This document shows, piece by piece, positions 30,186-46,907 of a DNA stretch of 64,000 nucleotides. How positions within the stretch are numbered: the first letter of the stretch is position 1; every line of letters begins with the position of its first letter. The notes under the pieces are model-generated. The model worked only from the letters and a program-made list of their open reading frames with translations. It was not told the DNA's origin and made no database searches. Source of the DNA: Aureimonas sp. AU22 (lineage in GTDB: Bacteria > Pseudomonadota > Alphaproteobacteria > Rhizobiales > Rhizobiaceae); the NCBI RefSeq assembly GCF_001463745.1, contig NZ_BBWJ01000051.1, positions 1-64,000 on the forward strand. The letters are read 5' to 3'. The translations under genes were made by a program, and so were the position numbers.

Positions 30186-34214
<4,029 letters not shown>

Positions 34215-34216
34215 TC

Positions 34217-34310
34217 GGAAAACGATTGCGAAGGCTGCGTTGTGGCGGGAAGGGATTGAACTCGGTCTGTAACGGATTGGGCTTCTGCTGACAGGATTAG
34301 GCTGACTGAA
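34217..34310 (-). repeat. Left set of degenerate ~22-base repeats after gyrB
   Basis: Read on the minus strand, a core like AGCCCAATCCCTTTC recurs four times: AGCCTAATCCTGTC, AGCCCAATCCGTTAC, AGTTCAATCCCTTCC and TTCGCAATCGTTTTC. The AATC cores are spaced 20, 21 and 30 bases apart. A second set in the same orientation is at 35421-35514. Multiple short end repeats of this spacing are typical of transposase-binding ends in Tn7-like and IS21-like elements, but no transposase is present. Confidence 0.5.
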
Positions 34311-34313
34311 CGC

Positions 34314-34372
34314 ATGCTCCGGTGACGGGTTTTCCGGAACCGGAGCATCGCTGAACCGGGTTGACCCCGGTT
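34314..34372. terminator. Two tandem hairpins between gyrB and the accessory region
   Basis: ATGCTCCGGT (34314-34323) is a perfect inverted repeat of 34339-34348. AACCGGG (34354-34360) pairs with CCCGGTT (34366-34372) and is followed by TCCGACTT. Either could terminate gyrB transcription or that of the oppositely oriented gene; neither has a strong T-run. Confidence 0.4.
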
Positions 34373-34400
34373 TCCGACTTCGAACGGCAAAGCTTGAGGT

Positions 34401-35234
34401 TCATGGATCGCATGCCGGGCATCTCCGCGACTTGGTCCTCCGTCTGACCCCATGGAAGGGGTCCTCGATGGTCGCCGGATGCGTATGACCCAGTACGGCG
34501 CCGGACGGGAGAGCCTCCGCGAGGGTGAACGTGAAGTCGATGTCCTGCACCCAGACATCTCGCGTTGCCGTTAGACGGGCCCATTCGAGCAACAAGTGTC
34601 TCGCCAGGTCACGTCTTTCACCGTCCGACGACCTGTCGAGGTTCAGGACGGCACGAACGAGCGTGGGGTAGCCCCGCTTGCGCAGCACCGGATGCGCGAC
34701 CCAGCCGAGGATCACCTGCACCCATTCGCTGCCGTAGATCAGGTAGTGTCCCGCCCCGCCCCCGGTCAGCGAGCGGCTGTCGAGGACGACGTGGAGCAAA
34801 CCGGCATCCCGCTCACGCTTCGGGAACGAGGCGAGGAGCGCGTCGGCGTCCGGGTAAACGGCGGCCAACTCCGGCTCGCTCCGGATGAGTTCCCTCACAT
34901 GGTCGTCGAGAGCCGCGGGGTCGTTGACCTTCAAGCCCTCCCTCGAGAAGCGTCCGGGGTCGTCCACCCGGCTGCCGTGGAAGACAACGGCGCGCGCCGC
35001 TGCAAGGTCGTCGGACAGTTCGTCGAGGAGGTCCTCCAAGCCGGGCACGGACGCCCTCCCGACGCGGTCGACCCATTCCGCGTCGTCGACGTAGAGTTGC
35101 TTTCGGGGCTTTCGGGTCAGGCGCTCCAAGCCTCCCGACTTCAAGCGGTCGCCGACCCAGTTCCCAATCGCAGGAACCCAGGTCGATGGCGACTCCCACT
35201 CGATCGTGAGGTCCGAGAAGTTGTCGTCGTGCAT
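34401..35234 (-). CDS. Hypothetical protein with ADP-ribosyltransferase-like signatures
   Basis: The 277-residue soluble protein matches no family I can name with certainty. Residues 85-89 FHGSR and 99-101 EGL, followed by HYLIYGSE ending at Glu170, recall the pattern of an ADP-ribosyltransferase fold (a His in the first strand, a Gly-Leu turn and a late catalytic Glu). This is a weak, motif-level inference. The gene lies between the two repeat sets. The C-terminus ends RRCPACDP. It may be a cargo toxin or effector of a lost mobile element. Confidence 0.6.
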   Translation of the reverse strand: MHDDNFSDLTIEWESPSTWVPAIGNWVGDRLKSGGLERLTRKPRKQLYVDDAEWVDRVGRASVPGLEDLLDELSDDLAAARAVVFHGSRVDDPGRFSREGLKVNDPAALDDHVRELIRSEPELAAVYPDADALLASFPKRERDAGLLHVVLDSRSLTGGGAGHYLIYGSEWVQVILGWVAHPVLRKRGYPTLVRAVLNLDRSSDGERRDLARHLLLEWARLTATRDVWVQDIDFTFTLAEALPSGAVLGHTHPATIEDPFHGVRRRTKSRRCPACDP

Positions 35235-35420
35235 CGGCTGCTCCCCGGGCGCGTGTCTGAGATGCTGTGGATGCCGATCGCGCCGGCTGGGCTGGCTTCG
35301 TCCGTCCGACAGGTTGTACGCATGTTGGCATCAGTCGCTCAAGGCGGCCATGTCCTCGCGGATGCCCGGTCACGTAGGCGTTCAAGCCCCGTCCAAGCCG
35401 TTGCGCGGAGCGGTCCGCAA
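35235..35420. other. Non-coding stretch inside the 514-base gap before vsr
   Basis: Together with the repeats at 35421-35514 and the sequence up to 35748, this forms a gap with no supportable gene. Frames are open in several directions because of high GC, but none has a family match or a ribosome binding site. It contains the upstream region of the minus-strand gene that starts at 35234. Confidence 0.4.
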
Positions 35421-35514
35421 ACAGCCCGAAAGGGTTTGGGCTGTCCGATGAAGGGGATTGGACCCACCACGTGAAAGGGATTGCGCTACTCCCCGAAAGC
35501 GATTGGGCCGCCGG
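35421..35514 (-). repeat. Right set of degenerate ~22-base repeats
   Basis: On the minus strand the core recurs as GGCCCAATCGCTTTC, AGCGCAATCCCTTTC, GGTCCAATCCCCTTC and AGCCCAAACCCTTTC, at 22, 23 and 22-base spacing. The set has the same orientation as that at 34217-34310 and is better conserved. The last copy also forms a hairpin: ACAGCCC (35421-35427) with GGGCTGT (35438-35444). Confidence 0.6.
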
Positions 35515-35748
35515 AAACTCCTGACCTCCGCGTCCGCCGTGCCCAACAATGCGACTCACCGGGCACGACGCCATGACCCGTAGCGCCCTTAGCGTGGTCG
35601 GCTCGGCGGAGCATCTGGCGGGACCGTCTACGCGACGCGCCGAACAGCCTTCGTTCGCGACGAAAACATGCGGAACTCGCTTCGGGCGCCTTTCCGCCGA
35701 GCACGGCCCGTGACGAACTTCCGCCCGCTTCGCGAGGGATGCAGGGCC

Positions 35749-36192
35749 ATGGACACGGTCAGCCCAGAAGCCAGGAGCGCCAACATGCGGGCGGTCCGGT
35801 CGTCGAACACACAGCCCGAGAAGGCGGTCCGTTCGATCGCTCACGCTTTGGGCTTGCGATTCCGCCTGCATCGGCGGGACCTTCCGGGAACGCCCGACCT
35901 AGTGCTGCCGAAGCATCACGTCGCCGTTTTCGTCCACGGTTGCTTCTGGCATCGCCACGAGGGATGCAAGGCGGCCTCTCTTCCGAAGACGCGGACGGAC
36001 TACTGGCAGGCGAAGTTCGACCGCAACGTCGCGCGCGACGCCAAGGCGCGGGACGACCTAGAGGCCCTGGGCTGGAAGGTCGTCGTGGTGTGGGAATGCG
36101 GCGTGAAGGATCGGGAGGCCGTCGGCGCCCTCCTGTTCCGGGCGCTGTCCCGCGACCTTCCGCTCCCGCCGCCGCACGAGAGTAGCGGCTGA
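35749..36192 (+). CDS. vsr: Very short patch repair endonuclease
   Basis: Vsr nicks next to T:G mismatches that arise when 5-methylcytosine deaminates, and normally accompanies a cytosine-5 methyltransferase. The 147-residue protein has the catalytic Asp50 in PGTPDLVLP, the signature VHGCFWHRHEGCK with zinc-ligand cysteines and histidine, and a TDYWQAKFDRNVARD helix. ATG 35749 (MDTVSPEARSANM) is the family start; upstream extension to 35668 is unlikely. The matching methyltransferase is probably the one at 40343-41308. Confidence 0.93.
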   Translation: MDTVSPEARSANMRAVRSSNTQPEKAVRSIAHALGLRFRLHRRDLPGTPDLVLPKHHVAVFVHGCFWHRHEGCKAASLPKTRTDYWQAKFDRNVARDAKARDDLEALGWKVVVVWECGVKDREAVGALLFRALSRDLPLPPPHESSG

Positions 36193-36264
36193 ACCCGGGG
36201 GAGGGGTGCGAGCCGTCCCTGTCTCGATAGCTCGCGACGGCAAACGGTCCCGTTCCCGACGCCG

Positions 36265-36861
36265 TCAGTCATGCAGTCCCCAGTTCTGGTCGGCGTCGTT
36301 GCGCCTGTTCGAGGCCTCCGGCGGCAGCGTCGACGAGACGCGCGGCTGTCCGTCGGTTCCCGTCCACGCGAGCGTGACGCCCCAGCCGGAACCCTTCCCG
36401 CTGTTGGTCGGGTAGCGCGACAGCGACTTCGTCACCGGGATCCCCGCGATCGTCATCGTGCCCGACCCCGTTCCCATGTGGGCGACGAAGAGGGCGTCGA
36501 GGAAGGAGTGGTCGAGGAGGTCGGCTTCCCGTACGAGGGACAGGTCGCGAAGGGCATCCGTCCGCCTCTTCCTCTCGTCGCGCCGGCGGCGGACCTCGAC
36601 GTCCGATACGTACGCTTCGGCCCCCGGGGCGTCCTGCGGCTCGGTCCCGCGTTCCATGGGCAGGCGCCCCTGGCGGTAAGCGGCGAGGATCGCAGCCGCC
36701 GCGTCGGGCCCAACGAGCAGCGTGATGTCCATGGGGGAGTCCCGCGCGACGATGTCAGCCTTCTCCTCGCGCGACAGGACCGATCCGGAGAGGATCGCCT
36801 TGCGGGCGAGCAGCGGCCTCAGGCCGGGCAGTCTCGACAGGAAGCCCGTCAGCGTGATCAT
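36265..36861 (-). CDS. Hypothetical protein divergent from the GHKL-nuclease operon
   Basis: The 198-residue soluble protein was not recognised. An N-terminal amphipathic stretch (SRLPGLRPLLARKAIL) is followed by a charged central helix rich in Arg/Asp/Glu (VEVRRRRDERKRR) and a Gly/Ser/Thr-rich C-terminal half. The gene is 171 bases from the divergent GHKL-nuclease gene, so they probably share a control region. It could be a regulator or an accessory factor of that operon. Confidence 0.6.
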   Translation of the reverse strand: MITLTGFLSRLPGLRPLLARKAILSGSVLSREEKADIVARDSPMDITLLVGPDAAAAILAAYRQGRLPMERGTEPQDAPGAEAYVSDVEVRRRRDERKRRTDALRDLSLVREADLLDHSFLDALFVAHMGTGSGTMTIAGIPVTKSLSRYPTNSGKGSGWGVTLAWTGTDGQPRVSSTLPPEASNRRNDADQNWGLHD

Positions 36862-37032
36862 GCGTTCTCTCCGTTCCGTGTCAGCCGTCCCGCGGCGCGG
36901 ATGTCCGCCGGCCCGGCCGCCTACGGCACGCGTCCGTCGCGGACGGGTCCCTGTTCACCGGACCGGCCGTCCTGTTAAGGAATCGGAAGGCCGCGAATCC
37001 TTGACGGGTGGCGCGGGCGCCGGGAGGGACCC

Positions 37033-39336
37033 ATGTACGACCCAAACGAGACATCCGTCGACCCGATCCCGCCGGGCGCCATCGACCGCGATTCCCGCCC
37101 CTACGAGTTCAAGATGAAGATCGAGGGCGGCGTCCTCGATAACCTCGGCATCAAGATGTACACGCGGGTGGGCAAGGTGCTGGTCGAGTTCGCGGCGAAC
37201 GCGTTCGACTCCGACTCCCCCTTCGTCGACATCCGCTTCGACGCGACCACGATCGCCTGGGCCCGCGACGAGGTCAGGCGCGAGGCGACTAAGAAGCTTG
37301 AGGCTGAGCGCCTCGACGAGGCTCCGCCCGCCGACTCGAGACGTCCGAAGCGCCGGGCCCACGTCATCGTCGACCCCTTGCCCGAGGACGTGACGATCAC
37401 GATCCGCGACACGGGGCACGGCATGAGCGCGAGCCAGATTGCCGAGGCGTTCCTCCCCCTCAACCGCAACCGGCGCCGGCGGAAGGGCGCACAGGAGGAG
37501 AGCGACTTCTACTCGGAGGCCGGCAAGCGCCTCGTCATGGGCCGCAAGGGGATCGGCAAGCTCTCCGCCTTCGGCGTCGCGGAGCGGATGAAGGTGAGGT
37601 CCAAGAGGGCGGGGCAGACGTTCTGGACCGAGGTGGACCTGCGGGCGGACACCCTGCGCATGACCACGGACATCGGTTCGGTCGTGATCCCGCACGAGTA
37701 CCACGAGGCCTTGCCGCACGAGGTCGACCACCACGGCACGACGATCACCCTGATGGGCCTTCGGTGCGACTCCATGAATTTCACCGGGGACGAGATCGAG
37801 TCGGTGCTGGCCGAGACGTTCAATCCGATCCGTCCCGAGGAGTTCGAGATCCGGTTGCAGGGCGACCCCATCCGGCAGCCGAAGCCCGAGCTGGAGTTCG
37901 TGTACCCGGAGGGGATGGCCGACGGGGGGATGGCGGAGGAGACGCTCGACGACCCCCATTGGGGCGCCCTAGACCTGCGCTATCGGGTCCAGTTCAGGAA
38001 GAAGAGCCTGCCCGCCGAGAAGCGGGGCGCCTACATCTACTCGAAGAACCGCCTCGCGATGGATCCCTCGCTCCTCGGCCTGAACACCGGGATGCACAAC
38101 TTCATGGCCCAGCAATATATGGAGTGCATCGTCGAGTCGGACGACCTCGACAACCTAAACGTCGACGTCATCGGTACGAACCGCGCGGGCATCATCCAGA
38201 GCAGCGACGTCGTGAAGAGCTTCCTGCGCCGCGTGACCGACATCATGCGGGAGGCGGTCAACGCACACGCGCGCTTCAAGGAGAGGGAAGCCGACCGGAT
38301 GATCGACACGGCGCCGGAGGCGCGTGAACTGCGTCGTGTCCTCACGATGATCGCCCCCAACCAACAGAGGCACGCCAGGGATCTCGCGAAGGTGTTCGTC
38401 GGTCGCTACGGGGTTCACTCCGACGAGTTCGAGCACCTGACCCCGCTGATCATCGGCACAGCCAACGCGGGCGAGATCCTGATCGACCTGATCCGAGTGT
38501 CGGGGAATGCCGAGAGCATCGCCGAGATCGCGCCGAAGCTCGTGGAGCTGCGCGAGGTCGAGCGCGACGACGCCATCAAGCTCTACCAGGCCCGGCGGAA
38601 CGGCATCATCGGTTTGGAGCGGGTCGTCGATGGCTCGATGAAGACGATCGGCAAGGGGCCGCACGACGAGCGCGCGCTCCACCAGCTCCTCAAGGCGTCC
38701 CCGTGGCTGATACGCCCCGACCTCTCCGGCTACATCGCGAGCGACGAGGGGATGGCCAACGTCCTCGACAGGCTGGCCGCCGAGTTGAAGGTGGACGGGT
38801 ACGCGCCGCCGCCGGCCGAGAACGCCAGCATCGCGCCCGAAGGCGAGACCGAAGATCAGGAACAGCGGCGCACCGTCCGCCCTGACCTCGTCGCATTGGT
38901 CGGGGACGGACCGCATCCCGCCAACGTGTTCGTCGTCGAGCTCAAGGCGCCGACGGTGCCGCTCAGGGTCGAGCACCTTACGCAGCTCAAGACCTACATG
39001 ACCCGCGTGCGGCGCTTCTTCGAGGCCGAGGGCACCGCCAACGGGCGGAAGGTCAAGGTCGAGGGCGCACTCATCGGCGCCCTGCCGCATCCGTCGACGA
39101 AATCCGACGGACAGATGCAGCTCTTGGCGGAGCTAGGGGACCGCGGTCCGAACGCCGACTGGGAGGTCTTGAGCCTTCACGAGATGCTCGCGCGGACCCG
39201 GCGGGTTCATGAAGAGATGCTAGGCGTCCTCAAACGGCGTGCCGACGAGGAAGCGGCCTCGTCGCGAGACTCGGTAGAAGGTGGCCAGGCGACGACCGCT
39301 TCGGCTACAGCCGGCGGGTCGGGGGAAACGGCATGA
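37033..39336 (+). CDS. GHKL (Hsp90/MutL-type) ATPase fused to a PD-(D/E)XK nuclease domain
   Basis: The 767-residue protein has an N-terminal GHKL ATPase: N-box VEFAANAFDSD (51-61), DTGHGM (126-131), GRKGIGKLSAFG (170-181) and GTTITL (235-240). The middle is helical. The C-terminus (about 545-690) looks like the DUF4263/Shedu-type nuclease: Glu547 in DERALHQLL, Asp618 in RPDLVAL, Glu636 and Lys638 in FVVELKAP, then QLKTY at 651-655. An ATP-driven clamp with its own nuclease is plausible. Its stop overlaps the next start (ATGA). It has vsr upstream and a DNA methyltransferase downstream, a defence-type context. The exact family is not recognised. Confidence 0.82.
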   Translation: MYDPNETSVDPIPPGAIDRDSRPYEFKMKIEGGVLDNLGIKMYTRVGKVLVEFAANAFDSDSPFVDIRFDATTIAWARDEVRREATKKLEAERLDEAPPADSRRPKRRAHVIVDPLPEDVTITIRDTGHGMSASQIAEAFLPLNRNRRRRKGAQEESDFYSEAGKRLVMGRKGIGKLSAFGVAERMKVRSKRAGQTFWTEVDLRADTLRMTTDIGSVVIPHEYHEALPHEVDHHGTTITLMGLRCDSMNFTGDEIESVLAETFNPIRPEEFEIRLQGDPIRQPKPELEFVYPEGMADGGMAEETLDDPHWGALDLRYRVQFRKKSLPAEKRGAYIYSKNRLAMDPSLLGLNTGMHNFMAQQYMECIVESDDLDNLNVDVIGTNRAGIIQSSDVVKSFLRRVTDIMREAVNAHARFKEREADRMIDTAPEARELRRVLTMIAPNQQRHARDLAKVFVGRYGVHSDEFEHLTPLIIGTANAGEILIDLIRVSGNAESIAEIAPKLVELREVERDDAIKLYQARRNGIIGLERVVDGSMKTIGKGPHDERALHQLLKASPWLIRPDLSGYIASDEGMANVLDRLAAELKVDGYAPPPAENASIAPEGETEDQEQRRTVRPDLVALVGDGPHPANVFVVELKAPTVPLRVEHLTQLKTYMTRVRRFFEAEGTANGRKVKVEGALIGALPHPSTKSDGQMQLLAELGDRGPNADWEVLSLHEMLARTRRVHEEMLGVLKRRADEEAASSRDSVEGGQATTASATAGGSGETA

Positions 39337-40283
39337 CGTATGACCTCGTCGAACTGAGAAAGGCGAAGTTCGCGAAGTACGATATTCTCTTCAAGCGCAT
39401 CATCGACCCGGAGCGTTCGATGCTCCGTGAGATGTTGGGGCTCGTTCGAGCTAGGTCGCTTCCGACGGAGTTTGCTGGATTCCCCCCGCGGAGCGTCGAT
39501 GCTCTGTTCTGGAAGCGGGGTTGGTATCACCATGTCGAGTTCCAGACACGTGACCACGCGACGATGCGATGGAGGATGCTCGAATACTACTGGCTCATCG
39601 CCAAGCATAGGTACAAGTTGCGGACAGGCGTAGATCCCAGGATCAAGCAGAAGGTTCTTTATGTCGGGAACGGAACGTCCGGCATGGCGTCGACGATCAG
39701 CGCAGGCGTTCTCGATTACGAGTTTCAACTGCTGGACCTTGAGTCCTTCAACGATGATTGGGCGGACCGCCTTCTACGGTCGACCGAGCCTTCCGACATC
39801 GTACTCGGCCTTCTATGCCGACCTTTCCTAGAGCCAGACGACTGGACCGAAGCCTACCGAAAGGAGTGGAAGAGGGCTGCCAGAATCGTGTCCCGTGAGG
39901 CCGAGATCGATCCGTTCCACGCTGGGGACGGTCCAGCACTCTTGTTGGTCGCAGCTCTGCTCAAGAAGGTGCCCGAGGACGTCAAAAGGAGTCTCGAGAT
40001 GGCAATCCGTGTCGATGTGCAACAATCCAAACTGTTCACTCAGGTTTTTGACGAAGGTGAAGACTCCGGCCGCGTCAAAATGGCACTGCGGATGATCCAG
40101 AAGCACGCCCAACAAAATGGGATCCTCCTTGACAAGGAGACTCAGGAGAGGCTGACCGAACTCGACGCCGATGTCTTGGAAGACCTGGCATATGACTTCA
40201 GAGGGGGGGCGGACATCGTCGAGCTGGTGGCCCGTGCGGGACACAGCGTCGACGGGGACGCAATAGAGTTCGATGGGTGGTAA
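39333..40283 (+). CDS. Rpn-like PD-(D/E)XK nuclease/transposase-family protein
   Basis: The 316-residue protein resembles the Rpn (recombination-promoting nuclease) and related PD-(D/E)XK families: FKRIIDPERSML at the start, catalytic Asp56 in PRSVDALFW, Glu69 and Gln71 in HHVEFQT, then RMLEYYWLIA. The C-terminal part is helical and could mediate oligomerisation. It overlaps the GHKL gene by four bases, so they are translated together. Its codon use has more A/T in third positions than its neighbours, suggesting separate acquisition. Rpn proteins are DNases in E. coli; its role here is unknown. Confidence 0.78.
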   Translation: MTYDLVELRKAKFAKYDILFKRIIDPERSMLREMLGLVRARSLPTEFAGFPPRSVDALFWKRGWYHHVEFQTRDHATMRWRMLEYYWLIAKHRYKLRTGVDPRIKQKVLYVGNGTSGMASTISAGVLDYEFQLLDLESFNDDWADRLLRSTEPSDIVLGLLCRPFLEPDDWTEAYRKEWKRAARIVSREAEIDPFHAGDGPALLLVAALLKKVPEDVKRSLEMAIRVDVQQSKLFTQVFDEGEDSGRVKMALRMIQKHAQQNGILLDKETQERLTELDADVLEDLAYDFRGGADIVELVARAGHSVDGDAIEFDGW

Positions 40284-40342
40284 AAGGTCGACCGATGGCT
40301 GGGACCGTCCTCACGACTGCGGCCGTCACGCCCTGAAGCGTT

Positions 40343-41308
40343 TCAAAGAGCTGCGACCACCGCCTTTCCAACCGCTGCCGCCAACGGGATCGGAACCCCG
40401 TTCCCAATCTGTCGTGCGACCGGGTACGGACGACCGGCGAACGTCCACGAGTCGGGCACGCCTTGTAGGCGTGCGCCCTCCCGCAACGACAACACCCGGT
40501 CCTCGACGGGGTGAAGGTAGCGGCCCTTGGAGGGGTTCTGGAACGTGCAGCGCAGGGTGTTCGACGGAGCGTCCGCGTCCATGCGGCCCCACGCGTCCGT
40601 CGCCTGGCAGCCCATCCTCAGCCACGAGGGCGGGCAGAGCTCCGGCGCCAGCTTGATGATGTCCCTCTTGTCGCCACCCTTCGGCACGCGCGCGATCCGC
40701 TCGGACGCTACCCCGCGCGGGGTCGGCCACACGTTCATCGGGTCGTCGGCCGCGACGGGCCGGGTCGGGTCCATGATGGCCTCGGCGACGGTGGTCGGGG
40801 TTCCGGTCGGCTCCGGACGGGCGATCGCCCCGACCTTGGACGCGACGGTGAAGGCCCGGCGGCGGCGTTGCGGCGTCCCGAAATCCTTGGCGTCCAGCTC
40901 CCAGACGTCGATCCCGTAACCCATGCCCCGGAGGCCTTCCGCCAAGCGGTGCCACTGCTGGGACCTGACGAACGGGGGCACGTTCTCGATCACCACGACC
41001 CGCGGCGACGACTTGCGGACCCACGGGAGGACGCTGAGGCCGAGTTCGTTGCGCTCGTCGAGGGGGTCGCGGCGGCCGAGGGTGCTGAAGCCCTGGCAAG
41101 GCGGGCCCGCCACGAGCACGTCGCAGCGAAGGTCGGAGAACGCCTCGGACGCGTCGGCGCGGACGACGCAGCCCGCGACGTTGCGTTCGTAGCTCTCCAC
41201 CGCGTCGTGCGAGAGCTCGACCGCGAGCACGGGGGCGAGACCGGCCTCGATCATTCCGGCGCTGAAGAGTCCGGCCCCGCTGAAGAGGTCTATGAAGGTT
41301 GCCGTCAT
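40343..41308 (-). CDS. dcm: DNA (cytosine-5-)-methyltransferase
   Basis: The 321-residue C5 methyltransferase has motif I FIDLFSGAGLFSAGMIEAG, motif IV AGPPCQGFS with the catalytic Cys71, motif VI ENVP, motif VIII QRRRRAF and motif X RQIGNGVPIPLA. The target-recognition region spans about residues 190-270. The start at 41308 follows motif I; ATG 41404 would add 32 residues. The target is unknown. No cognate type II restriction enzyme is adjacent; vsr and the GHKL-nuclease operon are the associated genes. It converges with the Rpn gene. Confidence 0.93.
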   Translation of the reverse strand: MTATFIDLFSGAGLFSAGMIEAGLAPVLAVELSHDAVESYERNVAGCVVRADASEAFSDLRCDVLVAGPPCQGFSTLGRRDPLDERNELGLSVLPWVRKSSPRVVVIENVPPFVRSQQWHRLAEGLRGMGYGIDVWELDAKDFGTPQRRRRAFTVASKVGAIARPEPTGTPTTVAEAIMDPTRPVAADDPMNVWPTPRGVASERIARVPKGGDKRDIIKLAPELCPPSWLRMGCQATDAWGRMDADAPSNTLRCTFQNPSKGRYLHPVEDRVLSLREGARLQGVPDSWTFAGRPYPVARQIGNGVPIPLAAAVGKAVVAAL

Positions 41309-41477
41309 TCCGCCTGCCGCTGCCCCCGTCATCCGCGGACCGGGGCGCCGAGTGTGGGTCGCCACGGGTGCCGCCCACGCTTCGGGAAAGTTCGGTGCCA
41401 GCATCGCGCCCTCATGCTGAAGGACGCGTTAACGTCGAGGCGGGCAGGCATCGCATGGAGCCTGTCCGCCTGAGCCG

Positions 41478-43544
41478 TTAGCCGGGAACGGCGCGGGGCG
41501 CTCCCCGCCGCCTGTCCGACCGCGCTGAGGCTGGTTTGACTTCCGCCTCCGTCCCGGTCCGGGCCACGGAGTGGACGTGCCGTCCAGATGCGGCATGCCA
41601 GGTCCCGTGCATCTCCAGGCGCCCGGCGATGGCATCGAGGTCGGTTCGCCGTTCCCTTAGGAACCCGCGCGCACATTCCAGACACTCGGCCAGCGTCCGT
41701 TCGACGCGACGCCCGAACGCCCTGTCCAGTCGGAGGCACCGGGCGACCTCGTCGTCGGACGTCATCCCCGTCGTGGCCAGCGTGCCGCCGAGGCCGAGGT
41801 CCAGCTCGATGCGGGCGACGAGCCTCGTCGCCCTCGCGAGGTCCGAATCCGGCGAACCGCCGCTGAGCTCGCTCGACTGGCCGAACACCTCGAGCTCGGC
41901 AGCCGTCCCCCCGAGCATCGTCGTCACCAAGTGAAGGTATGAGGCCAGCGTTCCTTCTCCCCCGCGCTCGAGCGTGAACTCCGTCCGGTTGCCGTTCGGC
42001 CCCCGGAGCTCGCGCCGGACCGCGGCCCGCACGGGGACGGAACCCGACGCAGCGGCGAGCGCCTGCCCCACGACGATGTGTCCCGCCTCGTGCACGCACA
42101 CCCGCTTGAAGGCCGCGTCGGTCAGGCGGAGGGCCGGCGGCAGGGCGCTGACCAGGTCGCCGTGCTCCATGGGGCGCCGCGCCGTGCGCGCCGCCCGGCG
42201 GGCGCCGCGCACGAGAGCTTCAATGTCGGCGCCGCTCTTGCCGTCCATGGCCTCGGCGACCTCCGTCAGGTCCGCGCCCGGGAGGTCCCACCGAAGGTGG
42301 AAGCGCAGGATCTGCGCCCGCGCGCACGCATCCGGCAGGGGGATCGCGATCTCCCTGTCGAGGCGACCGGCCCTGCGGATGGCGGGATCGATGAGCTGCG
42401 GATGGTTGGTGGCGCCGACGACGACGACGCCCGGCCGTCCCTCGGCACCGTCAAGGCATTCCAGGAAGGCGTTGATCACCTCCCTCGTGTATCTCGCGTT
42501 GTGGTCGTCGACGTTCGCCCGGTCGCCGAACGAGTCGAGTTCGTCGACGAACAGGATGCACGGAGCGGCTGCGATCGCCTCGGAGAAGGCATTGCGCATG
42601 GCCTTCAGCAGGGCGTTGAGGTAGCCCGCCGCCTGCCAGCGCGCGAGGCTGTGGATGTGGACGGGGACACCGCACGTCCTCCCGAGCGCACGGGCGAACG
42701 TCGTCTTGCCCGTTCCCGGCGGTCCGTGCAGGAGCGCGCCTCGGTCCACCTCGCCCCAACCGATGCGGCCGGCCCTGTAGTCCGCGAGGTCGACCGCGAG
42801 GGTCCGTCCCCATTCGGCAGCCTCGCCGAGGCCCGGCAGATCGTCCAGGGTCGGGCCATCGGAAACGCCGACGACCTCACCTGCCGCATCGGAATTCTTT
42901 TCTGATGCGGCCTCCTTCTCCCGACCCGTCGGTTCAGCCGAGCGCGCGGCCTCGATGCGCATGGCCAGCCCGGCCGCAGCGCGGAACGAGCGGCCGCCCT
43001 CCACGAAGGAGGTCAGCAGGTGCCAGGGCACCGACATGACGTACTCGAGCTCGCGGGCACCCATCGGCTCGATGGCCCGCACGCGCGAGGCCATCGCCAG
43101 GAGCAGGCGGCGGTCGGGCATGGGGATGGCGGCGACCCCGTCCGCGATGGTCGCGAGGAACGCCGGGACGTCGTCAGGCGTGTCGTAGAGCCAGCAGGTG
43201 CTGCGATGGCTTTGGAGGCTGGGCACTGCGACGTCGACCGACTTGGTGCGGTCGGCCTTCATGCCCGTACGGTCGTGGACCTTGCTCCTGACGCAGTTCG
43301 GGTCGCGTCCCGACCTGCGGAACTGGTTCTCGATCGCGTCCATGAAGAGGCTGAGGGCACCGCCGGGGATGCCAACGACGACGAAGGTGCACGGGGCGCC
43401 TGCGAGGACGTGATGAAGCCCGGCCGCGCGCAGCGCGCGCTTCAGGAGCGACGTCGCCACGAAGTCGGTCAGGTCGAACGGCGTGCCGCCGCGCGAAGAA
43501 CGCGGGAGGTCATCGACCGGGCGGTAGTTGTCGAGCCGGGTCAT
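41478..43544 (-). CDS. Soluble FtsH-like AAA+ ATPase-metalloprotease
   Basis: The 688-residue protein has an AAA+ ATPase (Walker A GPPGTGKTT at 274-282, Walker B ILFVDELDSF at 330-339, sensor VVVGATNHP, Arg-rich RRAGRLDREI) followed by an M41 protease with HEAGH at 485-489. The third zinc ligand is likely Asp568 in DSDLARAT. Unlike FtsH it lacks N-terminal membrane helices; residues 1-230 are a different, unrecognised soluble domain. So it is a cytosolic ATP-driven protease with unknown substrates. Its start overlaps the upstream gene stop (ATGA). Confidence 0.85.
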   Translation of the reverse strand: MTRLDNYRPVDDLPRSSRGGTPFDLTDFVATSLLKRALRAAGLHHVLAGAPCTFVVVGIPGGALSLFMDAIENQFRRSGRDPNCVRSKVHDRTGMKADRTKSVDVAVPSLQSHRSTCWLYDTPDDVPAFLATIADGVAAIPMPDRRLLLAMASRVRAIEPMGARELEYVMSVPWHLLTSFVEGGRSFRAAAGLAMRIEAARSAEPTGREKEAASEKNSDAAGEVVGVSDGPTLDDLPGLGEAAEWGRTLAVDLADYRAGRIGWGEVDRGALLHGPPGTGKTTFARALGRTCGVPVHIHSLARWQAAGYLNALLKAMRNAFSEAIAAAPCILFVDELDSFGDRANVDDHNARYTREVINAFLECLDGAEGRPGVVVVGATNHPQLIDPAIRRAGRLDREIAIPLPDACARAQILRFHLRWDLPGADLTEVAEAMDGKSGADIEALVRGARRAARTARRPMEHGDLVSALPPALRLTDAAFKRVCVHEAGHIVVGQALAAASGSVPVRAAVRRELRGPNGNRTEFTLERGGEGTLASYLHLVTTMLGGTAAELEVFGQSSELSGGSPDSDLARATRLVARIELDLGLGGTLATTGMTSDDEVARCLRLDRAFGRRVERTLAECLECARGFLRERRTDLDAIAGRLEMHGTWHAASGRHVHSVARTGTEAEVKPASARSDRRRGAPRAVPG

Positions 43545-43882
43545 TCGCCGTCCCTCCCGTCGCTCTCGTAGGGACGGCCCAGACGGTAGACGCGGGACAG
43601 CGTGCGCGCGAAGCCGTGCGAGGGCGCAAGGATCCAGAGGTCCGACGTCCTTGCGAGCCTGCCGGAGGCGAGAACGGGATGCCCCGTGACGCGGCCCGCA
43701 AGGCAGTGCGTCGTGCGCGAGCCGAGCGCCCACCCGTCGATGAGCGGGGCGTCGGCGAGCACGGCACGCCCGGGGTACTCGCCCCTTGCCAGCGCTTCCA
43801 TGTCCGTGACGACGCCCCGCAGGCGCTCCAGTTCATCGCGAAGGTTGAGGGGGGCGCCGTTCGGCGCGACGAAGATCGCCAT
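43541..43882 (-). CDS. DUF6634-like small protein
   Basis: The 113-residue soluble protein has LADAPLIDGWALG and TSDLWILAPSHGFARTLSR followed by YRLGRP, which I associate with the DUF6634 family of alphaproteobacteria (no known function). Its stop overlaps the start of the FtsH-like gene, so the two are translationally coupled, and it may be an adaptor or substrate selector for that protease. Confidence 0.7.
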   Translation of the reverse strand: MAIFVAPNGAPLNLRDELERLRGVVTDMEALARGEYPGRAVLADAPLIDGWALGSRTTHCLAGRVTGHPVLASGRLARTSDLWILAPSHGFARTLSRVYRLGRPYESDGRDGE

Positions 43883-43949
43883 GACGTGACACTCCGTTCG
43901 CCGGCCGCGGTGCGGACGGACGCGAAGGAAGGAAAGGGTTGCGGAGGGG

Positions 43950-44555
43950 TCAGGCTTGGCGGCGTATGACGCGCGTCCGCGATCCGAGCGGTTCGTCGAG
44001 GTCGAGGTCCACCACCCTGGCAAGCGCCAGCGCGGCGACGGCGGCGACCGGGCGCGAGGTATGCCTGAGGATGCCCAGGCAGTCCGCGAGGGTGACGGAG
44101 CCTTCCTCGTCAAGCGCGGCGAGCAGCCTGACGCGGTCATCGAGGGTCACCCGCCACCTCGCGTAGGGGACGATCGCCCGCGCGTTCTCCAGCCTGATCG
44201 GATCGACGTCGTCGGGGCCGACGACCTTCGCGCTCGACGGAAGCGCCAGAGCACGAGGGTCGCATGACGGGGGACTGTCAGCCGCCACGAACAGGAACTC
44301 CTGGCCACCGCTGCCCCACGTCTCGAAGTCAGCGACGAGCCCGTCGCGGCCGACCGCCACGCGGCACCTCCAGCGGTGGACCGACGGGTCGACGTCGAGA
44401 AGCAGCGCGACGTCCGCCGCCAGCGCGGACGCGAACGACGCATCGCCGATGCAGCGCAGTGGACGGTGGCGGGCCTCGAACCCGGTACGGGATGCGCACG
44501 ACGGATGGTCGCCGACGTCGGATGGAGCGCAGGTGTTTGAACGCTCGGCACGCAT
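43950..44555 (-). CDS. Hypothetical protein, possibly TnsA-like
   Basis: The 201-residue protein has a SRTGFEARHRPLRCIGDASF opening, DPSVHRWRCRVAVGRDG and then LENARAIVPYARWRVTLDDR, with a C-terminal helical domain rich in Ala/Leu. The arrangement is reminiscent of small TnsA-like endonuclease annotations in alphaproteobacteria, but the catalytic residues are not clearly present, so this is only a lead. The gene is first in the putative operon with the DUF6634-like and FtsH-like genes, 67 bases upstream. ATG 44582 is an alternative start. Confidence 0.55.
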   Translation of the reverse strand: MRAERSNTCAPSDVGDHPSCASRTGFEARHRPLRCIGDASFASALAADVALLLDVDPSVHRWRCRVAVGRDGLVADFETWGSGGQEFLFVAADSPPSCDPRALALPSSAKVVGPDDVDPIRLENARAIVPYARWRVTLDDRVRLLAALDEEGSVTLADCLGILRHTSRPVAAVAALALARVVDLDLDEPLGSRTRVIRRQA

Positions 44556-45037
44556 GGCTAAGCTCCGCTTCGGACGGGGCATGGCCTCGCGTCCTTCAAC
44601 CTCGGGAAGGTGGCGGGGTCAGCGTATGGGCGGTCGGAGGGATGCGACGCGCGTCGGCGCTGCGCCGACGGGGCGCTGGCTTTTCCGCATGTAGGCAGGT
44701 GCCTGTCGCATGAGCACCAGGCTAGGTCCGTCGGGCACCAAGAGTCAACGATGCGATCGATTCGAAATACCGCCACCCCGTAACCCTGTGGACAACCTCC
44801 ATGTCGTTCGGCCATCGTCGAGGGACAGGCTTCGGCTCGCGTGCGTCATCCGCCCTCTGAGCCTTGCGGACCATTGCGGGGCGATGCCCGTTCCGGCGCT
44901 TCCAAGGCAATCCGCTGGCGGCGGCCAGGACGACGGCGACCGGTCTGGCCGTTTCGAAACCTTGACCCCGCGCCGATCTGCGCCGACAAGGTTCGCGCCG
45001 GAAGTGGGGCGTCCTCTCGAAGTCCCCGGACACTTGC
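44556..45037. other. 482-base gap without a supported gene
   Basis: Between two divergent genes. It holds a hairpin, CGTCGGCG (44652-44659) with CGCCGACG (44663-44670), followed on the plus strand by a short T-run, and a single DnaA-box-like TGTGGACAA at 44787-44795. Promoters of both neighbours must lie here, but none is clear. Open frames have no family match. Confidence 0.4.
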
Positions 45038-45424
45038 ATGAGCAGCATGCGGAGACTTGGACGAGCCATCGCGGGACGTTTGGCGGTCGCGCTAGCGGTC
45101 GTCGTCACCCTGTTGTGCGTATCGGTCGGTCCGTCCGTCTTCAACGATCGCCATGAAGCGAGCCTCGCCACGGTCGCGTTCGACGACGCCGGACATCGCC
45201 GCGACCGGGACGAGGGTCCCGCCGACACGACGATCAAGAGCGCCGGCGGCCATCACAAGAACCACTCCGCAGACCATGGCCACGAGAAGCTGGGAGTCCC
45301 GCCCGCGCTCCCACCCTTCATGGCGCGTACCGGCGACACGGTCGTAGCCCCGGCAACCGCCGACTACGTGTCGGGTCTTCCCGCAAGGCTCGACCGACCC
45401 CCGAGATCCCCCGACGTCGCCTGA
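45038..45424 (+). CDS. His-rich secreted or membrane-anchored small protein
   Basis: The 128-residue protein has a signal or membrane segment (LAVALAVVVTLLCVSVGPSV) followed by a His-rich stretch GGHHKNHSADHGHEKLG and a Pro-rich tail ending ARLDRPPRSPDVA. Such proteins occur near divalent-metal efflux genes (CzcI-like), and metal binding is plausible but not shown. The start at 45038 or 45047 is uncertain; neither has a good ribosome binding site. Confidence 0.5.
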   Translation: MSSMRRLGRAIAGRLAVALAVVVTLLCVSVGPSVFNDRHEASLATVAFDDAGHRRDRDEGPADTTIKSAGGHHKNHSADHGHEKLGVPPALPPFMARTGDTVVAPATADYVSGLPARLDRPPRSPDVA

Positions 45425-45490
45425 CCGCCGCCGCGGCCGTGGCTTGCGCCCGACGCGGCACGACAGCATTCGGACACTCGGAACCCATCC

Positions 45491-45745
45491 ATGACACGAC
45501 CTTCCTTGGAAGGCCGCACCCGCTCGCGTGACGCGATCCGGGCGGCGCCTCCCATGTCCGCGCCCGTACCGTTCGCGATGCCGGCCTGGACCACGACACA
45601 CCGCACCGACGACATCGGCGCGGGCAATCAGCCCCGCAACGGAACGTTCGGCCGGCCGAGCCTCGCCCCGTACGCATTCCCCGGCTCGGCTTCCGCCGCC
45701 GTTTGCTGCCGGGCCCCATCGTGTTCCCGGGGGCGGATGCCATGA
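45491..45745 (+). CDS. Doubtful small open frame upstream of the methyltransferase-like gene
   Basis: An 84-residue frame whose TGA overlaps the ATG of the next gene by four bases (ATGA), which suggests translational coupling. The sequence has no recognisable domain and the composition is Arg/Pro/Ser-rich, as expected of random GC-rich frames. It occupies most of the 317-base gap 45425-45741, which otherwise shows nothing. Confidence 0.22.
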   Translation: MTRPSLEGRTRSRDAIRAAPPMSAPVPFAMPAWTTTHRTDDIGAGNQPRNGTFGRPSLAPYAFPGSASAAVCCRAPSCSRGRMP

Positions 45746-46659
45746 AGGATCCGTTCGACGTCGGGGCATGGTTGCGGTCGAAGCCCGACCTTCAGTCCAT
45801 GCGCGAGCGCTTCCCCGAGGAGTGGGCGCGCGTCGAGCGCGACATGGCGACCGCCATCTCCGAGCGATCCGCCGCACGCATGAACACGGTACTGCTGCGT
45901 TCCGGCCCCGCATGGACCGTTCGAGCGAAAGGGAGGAAGCGTCGCCGGGAGGAGACGCTGCGCCTAGTCCGGCAACGCATGGCGATCCTCGCGCTCCAGC
46001 GGATCGGCACCGACGCCGTGACGAGGGGGGACGAGGATGCACCCGCCCTCGGCAGGATGTCCGCGGCGATCGCCTCGGGCCTCCTCCGCGACGGGGACGG
46101 CAACAAGAAGCCCGTCTCGATGCGCGTGTTCCGGCTGGCTTGGCCGTTCGTCCGCGACAAGGGTGCCTTTCTGACACGCGAACAGTCCCGCGGCAGCTAC
46201 TGCTTCCTGTCGCGCGAGTTCGTGGATGCCGTCGCCGGAATCGTGGGCGGCAGGCGATGCCTCGAGATCGCGGCAGGCGACGGCACATTGACCCGCTTCC
46301 TCGCGGGAGCGGGCATCCAGATCGCTGCGGTCGACGACATGAGCTGGGGGCACGAGATCCGCTACCCCGACTTCGTCCGGAAGATGGATGCGAGGGAAGC
46401 GCTCGCGGCGCTTGCCCCCGAGGTGGTCATATGTTCATGGCCCCCGCCGGGGAACCCGTTCGAAGCGGCCGTCTTCGACACGCGGAGCGTCCAGACATAC
46501 GTGGTCGTGGGCAGTCGGTACGGTTTTGCGACCGGGAACAGGGACGCGTACCGCTCGTCGCCCGGCTTCACCTGCGAGTCGGACGCGTCCCTGTCCGGGT
46601 TGGTCCTTCCGCCGGAAGCCGGACACGAGGTCCTGGTCTTCCGAAGGCGCGTCGAATGA
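45742..46659 (+). CDS. SAM-dependent methyltransferase-like protein
   Basis: The 305-residue protein has a C-terminal Rossmann methyltransferase-like half: motif I CLEIAAGDGTLTRFL, an acidic motif II IAAVDD, and ICSWPPPGNPF in the place of motif IV. The N-terminal 150 residues are helical and basic and not recognised. The substrate cannot be told: small molecule, RNA or protein. ATG 45742 is used because the frame before it (45703) adds residues of no family resemblance. Confidence 0.6.
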   Translation: MKDPFDVGAWLRSKPDLQSMRERFPEEWARVERDMATAISERSAARMNTVLLRSGPAWTVRAKGRKRRREETLRLVRQRMAILALQRIGTDAVTRGDEDAPALGRMSAAIASGLLRDGDGNKKPVSMRVFRLAWPFVRDKGAFLTREQSRGSYCFLSREFVDAVAGIVGGRRCLEIAAGDGTLTRFLAGAGIQIAAVDDMSWGHEIRYPDFVRKMDAREALAALAPEVVICSWPPPGNPFEAAVFDTRSVQTYVVVGSRYGFATGNRDAYRSSPGFTCESDASLSGLVLPPEAGHEVLVFRRRVE

Positions 46660-46781
46660 CGGCTGGGTCAGCGGCGGACATCCCGCCCTTGCGGGGAAGT
46701 CCGGTTCCGGCAGGAGCCTGACGACGAACGGGGCGCGGCTCGGGGCTCCCATGCCGCGTCGGCTCGACCCGGACGGTGCGT

Positions 46782-46907
46782 TCATCCGTTCAGCCAGAAC
46801 CGAATGCCCAAAGCCACGATGCCGAGCACTGCCAGGCTGGCGGCCCAGATGGCCACCAGCCACAGGAGCCGCTTCCACCAAGGACCCGCGTGAAGGCCGT
46901 CCTCCAT
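46782..46907 (-). CDS. Small bd oxidase-associated membrane protein (DUF2474)
   Basis: The 41-residue protein has one transmembrane helix (WLVAIWAASLAVLGIVALGI) flanked by basic GPWWKRL and the ending RFWLNG. Its ATG shares one base with the cydB stop (TGATG). Tiny membrane proteins at the end of cioAB/cydAB operons (DUF2474, CydX-like) stabilise the oxidase. It is too short for many gene callers. Confidence 0.8.
   Translation of the reverse strand: MEDGLHAGPWWKRLLWLVAIWAASLAVLGIVALGIRFWLNG

What the first reader, a model, noticed from the sequence alone, without database searches (positions are those of the whole stretch)
37033..40283. Overlapping GHKL-ATPase/PD-(D/E)XK nuclease and Rpn-like nuclease operon: candidate undescribed defence system
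A 767-residue protein couples a complete GHKL ATP site (Glu52/Asn56, DTGHGM at 126-131, GIGK at 173-176) to a C-terminal PD-(D/E)XK domain with Asp618, Glu636 and Lys638 and an upstream Glu547. Its stop codon overlaps the start of a second nuclease of the Rpn type (Asp56, Glu69-x-Gln71). vsr lies upstream and a C5 methyltransferase downstream. GHKL ATPases related to MutL and MORC have been described in predicted restriction-modification operons, but this two-nuclease pairing is not one I recognise. A methylation-sensing ATP clamp that gates two nucleases is an inference.
Basis: partly seen in the sequence, partly recalled or inferred. Interest (0 to 1): 0.85.

Follow-up and report, generated by a model that had tools for sequence, protein, structure and literature searches.

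The report
Restriction system with inserted toxin gene
The first gene looks like the DNA-cutting enzyme of a bacterial restriction-modification system, and the gene overlapping its end looks like a separate toxin-type nuclease that may carry its own antidote inside it, so this is most likely two known kinds of phage defence placed back to back rather than one new machine.

Summary
In detail: both ORFs, the 4-base overlap, the active-site residues, vsr and the C5 methyltransferase are real; one residue number is off (Glu546, not 547). The interpretation mostly does not. The GHKL protein is a paraMORC3-type restriction enzyme, related over its full length to BbrUII/HgiDII restriction enzymes but far below their score cutoff; its C-terminal domain is predicted to fold like the Shedu nuclease. 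Of 89 loci with a relative, 85 hold a C5 methyltransferase ORF, 20 a vsr, none an Rpn; the nearest (64%) lacks it. The Rpn-like gene has other GC content (56.9% against 66-71%), and its relatives sit elsewhere. Met is kept in 24 of 24 aligned genes (window included, E. coli RpnA left out), 22 with a ribosome-binding site, against 1 of 187 other internal ATGs: the signature of an Rpn toxin with an intragenic antitoxin. Best reading: a type II restriction-modification system with a separate Rpn module inserted behind its restriction gene. A coupled guard function is not excluded, only unsupported.

The parts
34215..46788 (.). Variable region holding these genes. DNA alignment with the gyrB places of three same-genus genomes stops at 34214-34217; in the nearest genome alignment resumes at 46789 on another contig
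   Evidence: not shown to be a simple insertion: in one relative gyrB and cydB lie 2.3 Mb apart, and the empty site was not seen joined
35749..36192 (+). vsr, very short patch repair endonuclease (ORF open from 35668)
36265..36861 (-). 198-aa gene of unknown function between vsr and the GHKL gene; relatives sit beside varied genes
37033..39336 (+). Predicted restriction endonuclease: GHKL ATPase + S5-type part + PD-(D/E)XK nuclease, paraMORC3 architecture
37099..38187 (+). GHKL ATPase and S5-type part (about residues 23-385)
   Evidence: pLDDT 63.2, pTM 0.42: modest; Foldseek to TRAP1/Hsp90, MORC, MutL
38644..39252 (+). PD-(D/E)XK nuclease domain (about residues 538-740; E546, D618, E636, K638); best fold match is the Shedu nuclease
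   Evidence: (pLDDT 82.5, pTM 0.77)
39333..40283 (+). Rpn-like nuclease (predicted toxin, RpnL): Y16-D17-x3-K21, D56, E69-x-Q71, R81-M82-x2-Y85
39986..39991 (+). Internal Shine-Dalgarno sequence AAGGAG, 7 nt before the in-frame ATG of Met223
39999..40283 (+). Predicted separately translated C-terminal protein (RpnS-like antitoxin, 94 aa)
   Evidence: translation not shown
40343..41404 (-). C5 cytosine DNA methyltransferase (probable cognate modification enzyme, convergent; possible start at 41308)

Best explanation
Two stacked defence modules. (1) A type II restriction-modification system: the C5 methyltransferase marks the cell's own target sites; the GHKL protein is the restriction enzyme, whose ATPase half, as in MutL and MORC, should dimerise around DNA on binding ATP and so control the Shedu-like PD-(D/E)XK half that cuts unmodified DNA; Vsr repairs the T:G mismatches left when methylated cytosine deaminates. 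(2) An Rpn gene placed directly behind the restriction gene, its start overlapping the restriction gene's stop, so that the full-length nuclease (RpnL) is probably made by translational coupling; a strong internal ribosome-binding site makes the C-terminal piece (RpnS) separately, which keeps RpnL inactive until infection. Shown by sequence or prediction: genes, motifs, homology, neighbourhoods, composition, predicted fold, conservation of the internal start. Inferred: ATP-gated cutting, methylation protection, coupling, antitoxin action. Unknown: the target site.
For: GHKL side: full-length profile match to BbrUII-type proteins (hhalign probability 100, E 1.6e-46, residues 24-734, catalytic motifs aligned); two rows of that second profile pass the curated BbrUII/HgiDII cutoff (L063 813.9, L079 771.6 bits) and have a C5 methyltransferase and vsr beside them. 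85 of 89 loci have an ORF matching the window's methyltransferase (blastp E up to 1e-4) and 20 a vsr; clustered at 80% identity, 58 and 18 of 62, with 55 of 62 within 500 bp of the GHKL ORF. The six loci nearest in sequence (34-64%; two are the identical gene) all have the methyltransferase, four of six a vsr. In the nearest (L033, 64%) only 38 bp separate the stops of the GHKL gene and the methyltransferase. C-terminal model: Foldseek ranks 1-7 and 9 are Shedu chains, best E 4.2e-5, rank 8 a restriction enzyme. Rpn side: GC 56.9% against 66.4 (GHKL), 70.7 (methyltransferase), 67.6% (vsr); D at 56 in 25 of 25 and E or D at 69 in 25 of 25 aligned sequences, window and E. coli RpnA included. Met223 column: Met in 24 of 24 (window included, RpnA left out), ribosome-binding match of 5 or more bases in 22 of 24, against 0 at every other Met column with five or more ATGs and 1 of 187 other internal ATGs of the same genes; on the own contig 18 of 520 internal ATGs reach 5 and 4 of 520 reach 6 (the window's has 6). 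Glu codons at -5 to -3 are 29 GAG, 1 GAA; elsewhere 295 and 308. The window has AAGGAG in another reading frame (K-R-S) than relatives with AAG-GAG (K-E), so the DNA motif rather than the peptide is kept. The Rpn gene's own start has only a 3-base match, the GHKL gene's a 5-base one. E. coli rpn genes and a C. difficile rpn make RpnS from an internal start, and Rpn contributes to phage defence (PMC10327210, section 5 and passages read).
Against: The window protein scores 129.3 bits against the 550-bit BbrUII/HgiDII cutoff. GTCGAC, the site of M.HgiDII (PMC5867850, passages), is not avoided on the contig (109 seen, 120.8 expected). Of six weaker GHKL relatives in the host family taken with 11-16 kb, none had a match to the window's methyltransferase, and in one (L025) the GHKL gene itself was below the limit: some distant relatives stand alone. 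The 89 loci were mostly gathered with patterns from restriction-type members, so their share is biased. The second protein matches no Rpn model itself; the link runs through relatives, and among these FliH models score as well as the Rpn model (up to 5 of 16 members, best 5.1e-7, against 7 of 16, best 2.7e-6), probably from repetitive C-terminal parts. Direct bridge to E. coli Rpn is weak: hhalign probability 2.3% with RpnA, 19.8% with four Rpn; the relatives' profile finds 1 of 3 E. coli Rpn given to it. RpnA has no Met at the conserved column. The homologues are not independent: 18 of 24 come from five families of one search and 3 from one genome. In the two nearest defence-island relatives the ribosome-binding match is weak (L022: 3, L024: 4).
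Confidence: 0.7

Rival explanations
1. One reading: an undescribed two-nuclease system in which a methylation-sensing ATP clamp gates both nucleases.
For: The stop/start overlap implies co-expression; both active sites are intact.
Against: The pair was seen nowhere else: 0 of 89 GHKL loci with an Rpn by blastp and three profiles; the nearest relative lacks it; composition differs; the GHKL protein already carries a nuclease domain.
Confidence: 0.06
2. Guard toxin: the Rpn gene is wired to the restriction enzyme, as the PrrC ribonuclease is to the EcoprrI restriction system (recalled, from no call), and is released when a phage blocks restriction.
For: The Rpn start has a poor ribosome-binding site and overlaps the restriction gene's stop, while the internal start has a strong one, so RpnL dosage would follow the restriction gene.
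Against: Single occurrence; Rpn already has a predicted antitoxin of its own; a 4-base overlap can arise by insertion alone.
Confidence: 0.12
3. The GHKL protein is a standalone Shedu-type defence nuclease like VcSduA, and the methyltransferase and vsr are a separate orphan modification unit.
For: Same domain order as VcSduA (PMC12137116 section 12); Shedu is the top fold match; distant relatives without a detected methyltransferase exist.
Against: Methyltransferase ORF in 85 of 89 loci, usually touching or close to the GHKL gene; no SduA or DUF4263 match for the window protein.
Confidence: 0.1

Closest known systems
paraMORC3 GHKL proteins in restriction-modification operons (Iyer, Abhiman and Aravind 2008, PMC2292703; parts 1-2 of 4 read)
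   Same: GHKL ATPase + S5 domain + C-terminal restriction-fold nuclease with E-D-ExK motif, in neighbourhoods with DNA methylases and Vsr
   Different: The overlapping Rpn-like gene; no helicase gene was recognised beside it here
BbrUII/HgiDII family restriction enzymes (NCBIfam NF050001)
   Same: Homologous over nearly the full length, same kind of gene partners
   Different: Far below the curated score (129.3 of 550 bits); target site unknown and GTCGAC not avoided
VcSduA, a Shedu protein with a GHKL N-terminal domain (PMC12137116, section 12 read)
   Same: Same two-part architecture; nuclease half predicted to fold as Shedu; ATPase and nuclease mutants of VcSduA lose protection
   Different: No DUF4263/SduA sequence match; here the gene is tied to a methyltransferase
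Rpn (YhgA-like) nucleases with intragenic antitoxin RpnS (PMC10327210, section 5 and passages read)
   Same: D and E-x-Q motif, FR/WR-M-x-Y motif, internal start with ribosome-binding site giving a C-terminal piece
   Different: Very distant in sequence; the internal start lies at a different alignment position from that of E. coli RpnA; placed inside a restriction locus

Membership tests
paraMORC3-type restriction-modification enzyme | GHKL ATP-binding motifs intact | tested here: met
   E52, N56, D126, G128, G130, G173, G175, K176, T236 present, invariant in 6 of 6
paraMORC3-type restriction-modification enzyme | S5-type domain after the GHKL domain | tested here: met
   Foldseek of the full model to MutL, MORC, Hsp90 and topoisomerase ATPase modules; model of modest confidence
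paraMORC3-type restriction-modification enzyme | C-terminal restriction-fold nuclease with E-D-ExK | tested here: met
   E546, D618, E636, K638 invariant in 6 of 6; fold match
paraMORC3-type restriction-modification enzyme | Neighbouring DNA methylase and, often, Vsr | tested here: met
   Both in the window; methyltransferase in 6 of 6 and vsr in 4 of 6 nearest loci
BbrUII/HgiDII restriction enzyme (NF050001) | Curated score cutoff of 550 bits | tested here: not met
   129.3 bits; not filed as a member
BbrUII/HgiDII restriction enzyme (NF050001) | Full-length homology | tested here: met
   hhalign probability 100, E 1.6e-46
BbrUII/HgiDII restriction enzyme (NF050001) | Target GTCGAC | tested here: inconclusive
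   109 seen against 120.8 expected on 92 kb; low power
Shedu | Shedu nuclease fold | tested here: met
   Foldseek ranks 1-7 and 9 are Shedu chains, best E 4.2e-5, TM to target 0.28-0.54
Shedu | DUF4263/SduA sequence family match | tested here: not met
   None for the window protein in Pfam or PADLOC; SduA in 1 of 21 C-terminal pieces at 4.3e-4, not the window's; not filed as a member
Rpn nuclease | Active site D...E-x-Q | tested here: met
   D56, E69, Q71; in 25 aligned sequences D 25, E 22 + D 3, Q 19 with N, H or E in 6
Rpn nuclease | Family model match (TIGR01784, PF04754) | tested here: inconclusive
   None for the window protein; at E up to 0.01 TIGR01784 in 7 of 16 and DUF4351 in 13 of 16 members, but FliH models also hit; relatives' profile finds RpnC at 1.3e-4 in a small set but not RpnA or RpnB
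Rpn nuclease | Internal translation start for a C-terminal antitoxin | tested here: met
   Sequence signature only: 22 of 24 against 1 of 187 control ATGs
Rpn nuclease | DNase toxicity neutralised by RpnS | not testable with these tools
   Needs expression
Type II restriction-modification system | Methylation at a site protects it from the enzyme | not testable with these tools
   Needs methylome and cleavage assay

The most novel reading that the evidence does not exclude
The Rpn gene is a guard built into a restriction system: its full-length toxin is produced only in step with the restriction enzyme, its internally started fragment keeps it quiet, and a phage that blocks the restriction enzyme or shuts off the antidote releases a second, toxic nuclease, a DNA-cutting analogue of PrrC in EcoprrI.
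Probability: 0.1. Interest if true: 0.75.

Novelty: new member of a known kind. Interest (0 to 1): 0.35.

Why it matters
It shows how a striking operon can be an assembly of two known parts. Two by-products matter more than the pairing. First, the nuclease half of this restriction-enzyme group is predicted to share its fold with Shedu, which ties a type II restriction family to a defence family studied apart; paraMORC3 and Shedu have been linked in print (PMC12137116), but a search for papers holding two of Shedu, BbrUII, HgiDII and paraMORC3 found none that joins BbrUII or HgiDII to Shedu (2 papers, listing only; openly licensed papers only). Second, the internal start of Rpn genes, tested in what I read for the five E. 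coli genes and one C. difficile gene, has a strongly conserved signature in a distant branch, which makes the gene-within-gene antitoxin testable there.

Tried and rejected
One undescribed two-nuclease system: not supported, as the pair was not seen again. Rpn paired with the 198-aa gene (neighbours in L022, both in the window): rejected, because of the other relatives looked at (L130-L135) none has an Rpn match; one follows a C5 methyltransferase and one stands with the AAA/M41 and 210-aa genes. GTCGAC as target: no support. Nothing found by: genome contigs with the single GHKL protein; viral contigs with two Rpn alignments; plasmids with the Rpn protein; PDB sequences with the Rpn protein or profile, where only unrelated chance-level names appeared; tRNA and Rfam (gathering threshold) scans of the window. 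The close subfamily is rare: 1 of 397 genomes of the order, its own; in the family 34 of 247 genomes gave a match at E up to 0.001, all but the own gene partial and weak. A search for Rpn plus GHKL in print listed one paper with both terms; there 'RPN' is a reagent number (PMC13373217, passages).

Limits and dropped rows. The 89 loci are 4 genome contigs, 79 viral loci (best 80 of 129 stretches kept) and 6 of the 12 plasmid records; L003 and L036 are the identical gene. Four have no methyltransferase match (L006, L059, L080, L110), and two more only a weak one (L091, L093). The first Rpn profile (A3, three rows) was weak, so the 89 were searched again with A8 and A9. Four Rpn homologues with a stop inside were dropped (L139, L142, L146, L156); L157 and L160-L165, and matches that got no locus, were not used; L023's interrupted Rpn was left out and not mended; E. 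coli RpnA is in the 25 and left out of the 24. BREX-like (L034) and CBASS-like (L024) labels were read by eye, not searched.
Full report
Observation. The libraries name the first protein a GHKL ATPase (HATPase_c_3, 41.6 bits), a REase_II relative (PDLC03419, 66.8 bits) and a distant BbrUII/HgiDII restriction enzyme (NF050001, 129.3 bits against a cutoff of 550). The second protein has only a chance-level Pfam hit (0.11) and none in the other two.

The first gene. Homologues were found on plasmids (12 records, 4 covering at least 80% of the query), in genome contigs (4 loci) and in viral contigs (1 locus with a close alignment; 79 loci with a broad one). The nearest, in a Bradyrhizobium metagenome genome (L033, 64%), has vsr, the GHKL gene and a convergent methyltransferase 63% identical to the window's, with 38 bp between the two stops and so no room for an Rpn gene. 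The six nearest loci (34-64%, two of them the identical gene) all have the methyltransferase; four have a detectable vsr (L003, L033, L034, L036), two do not (L035, L044). Over 89 loci, 85 hold an ORF matching the window's methyltransferase, 20 a vsr and 0 an Rpn; clustered at 80% identity, 58 and 18 of 62, and 55 of 62 have the methyltransferase within 500 bp. The absence of Rpn was checked again with a 16-row profile of Rpn relatives and a 4-row E. coli Rpn profile: 0 of 89 each, while the same profiles found their positive controls. These loci were mostly collected with patterns from restriction-type members, so the share is biased upward. Six weaker relatives in the host family, taken with 11-16 kb, gave no methyltransferase match, and in one the GHKL gene itself fell below the limit; PMC2292703 mentions standalone paraMORC3 genes. 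The close subfamily is rare (1 of 397 genomes of the order, its own).

Its fold. A profile of the window subfamily matches BbrUII-type proteins over nearly the full length (hhalign probability 100, E 1.6e-46, residues 24-734); two rows of that second profile pass the curated BbrUII cutoff. The full-length model is of modest confidence (pLDDT 63.2, pTM 0.42), but its ATPase half matches TRAP1/Hsp90, MORC and MutL. The C-terminal piece folded with 21 rows gives a good model (pLDDT 82.5, pTM 0.77); Foldseek ranks 1-7 and 9 are Shedu chains from Bacillus cereus and E. coli (best E 4.2e-5), rank 8 is EcoO109I, and other restriction and nicking enzymes follow with weaker scores. VcSduA, with the same domain order, needs both its ATPase and its nuclease residues for defence (PMC12137116 section 12).

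The second gene. Relatives are few in the host family (4 of 247 genomes, own included) and class (3 of 385, own included) and commoner in a sample of the phylum with a wider profile (33 of 378, own included). Settings differ: in L022 a few kb from TniB and Mu-type transposase genes and next to a relative of the window's 198-aa gene; in L024 in an island with CBASS-like genes, vsr and a very large helicase (labels other than vsr by eye); in L023 beside an Abi_C gene, but with the reading frame interrupted. None of 40 Rpn-relative loci (36 distinct places; all but three with flanks of 1.5 kb or less) has a match to the GHKL gene. GC content sets the gene apart from its neighbours: 56.9% against 66.4, 70.7 and 67.6%. 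Of 16 aligned members, 13 match DUF4351 and 7 the Rpn family model TIGR01784 at E up to 0.01, but up to 5 also match FliH models as well or better, so family models alone do not settle it; direct links to E. coli Rpn are weak (hhalign 2.3% with RpnA, 19.8% with four Rpn; 1 of 3 E. coli Rpn found by the relatives' profile). What carries the assignment is the co-linear motif (Y-D-x3-K, D, E-x-Q, R-M-x2-Y) and the internal start.

The internal start. AAGGAG lies 7 nt before the in-frame ATG of Met223. In 25 aligned intact genes including E. coli RpnA, Met is kept at that column in 24; the exception is RpnA, whose proven internal start is Met244 (PMC10327210 section 5). Among the 24 (window included), 22 have a ribosome-binding match of 5 or more bases at 4-11 nt, against 0 at every other Met column with five or more ATGs and 1 of 187 other internal ATGs of the same genes; the two that fall short are the defence-island relatives L022 and L024. 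On the window's own contig 18 of 520 internal ATGs reach 5 and 4 of 520 reach 6. Glu codons just upstream are 29 GAG to 1 GAA there and 295 to 308 elsewhere. Many relatives encode the motif as Lys-Glu or Glu-Glu codons; the window encodes it in another frame as Lys-Arg-Ser, so the DNA motif rather than the peptide is kept. The genes are not independent: 18 of 24 come from five families of one search and 3 from one genome. The Rpn gene's own start has only a 3-base match, so the small product is probably made in excess, as reported for E. coli RpnS.

Surroundings. The genes lie in a region (34215-46788) that is not matched beside gyrB in three same-genus genomes; those genomes have no Rpn match and no full-length GHKL match. 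It is not shown to be one insertion: gyrB and cydB are far apart in one relative and on different contigs in the others.

Mechanism and verdict. A type II restriction-modification system (methyltransferase, ATP-controlled GHKL/Shedu-fold restriction enzyme, Vsr) with an Rpn toxin/antitoxin gene placed behind the restriction gene. ATP gating, site protection, coupling and antitoxin action are inferred. It is not filed as a BbrUII/HgiDII enzyme (cutoff not met) nor as Shedu (no family match); it is a paraMORC3-type restriction enzyme by each feature tested. The target site is unknown.

Noticed in passing
window 41478-44582 (-): AAA ATPase with an M41 (FtsH-like) protease domain (PF01434 just above its cutoff), a DUF6634 protein and a 201-210 aa protein. 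Relatives of the AAA/M41 gene, the 210-aa gene and the 198-aa gene (36265-36861) stand together in L132: a recurring cassette.
   Followed up: partly
own contig C51, about 85.7-91.9 kb (L032 5729-11946), outside the window: TniQ, TniB, a protein with a weak integrase-core match and a TnsA-like gene in a row: a Tn7-like transposition set.
   Followed up: partly
own contig C51, about 67.8-72.3 kb (L031 3788-8342), outside the window: An AAA_13 ATPase (the domain of PrrC/RloC-type proteins, recalled) next to a 727-aa protein with a C5 methyltransferase domain.
   Followed up: partly
L024 2311-15794: Rpn relative and vsr between CBASS-like genes and a very large helicase (labels other than vsr by eye): Rpn and vsr again in one island, without the GHKL gene.
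   Followed up: no
L034 10267-18180: In Methylobacterium the methyltransferase-vsr-GHKL set stands beside genes that look by eye like BREX (BrxL, PglZ), and an AAA/M41 relative lies on the other side.
   Followed up: no
L044-L122: The restriction-enzyme family with its methyltransferase is frequent in viral (phage or prophage) contigs: 129 stretches in one scan.
   Followed up: partly
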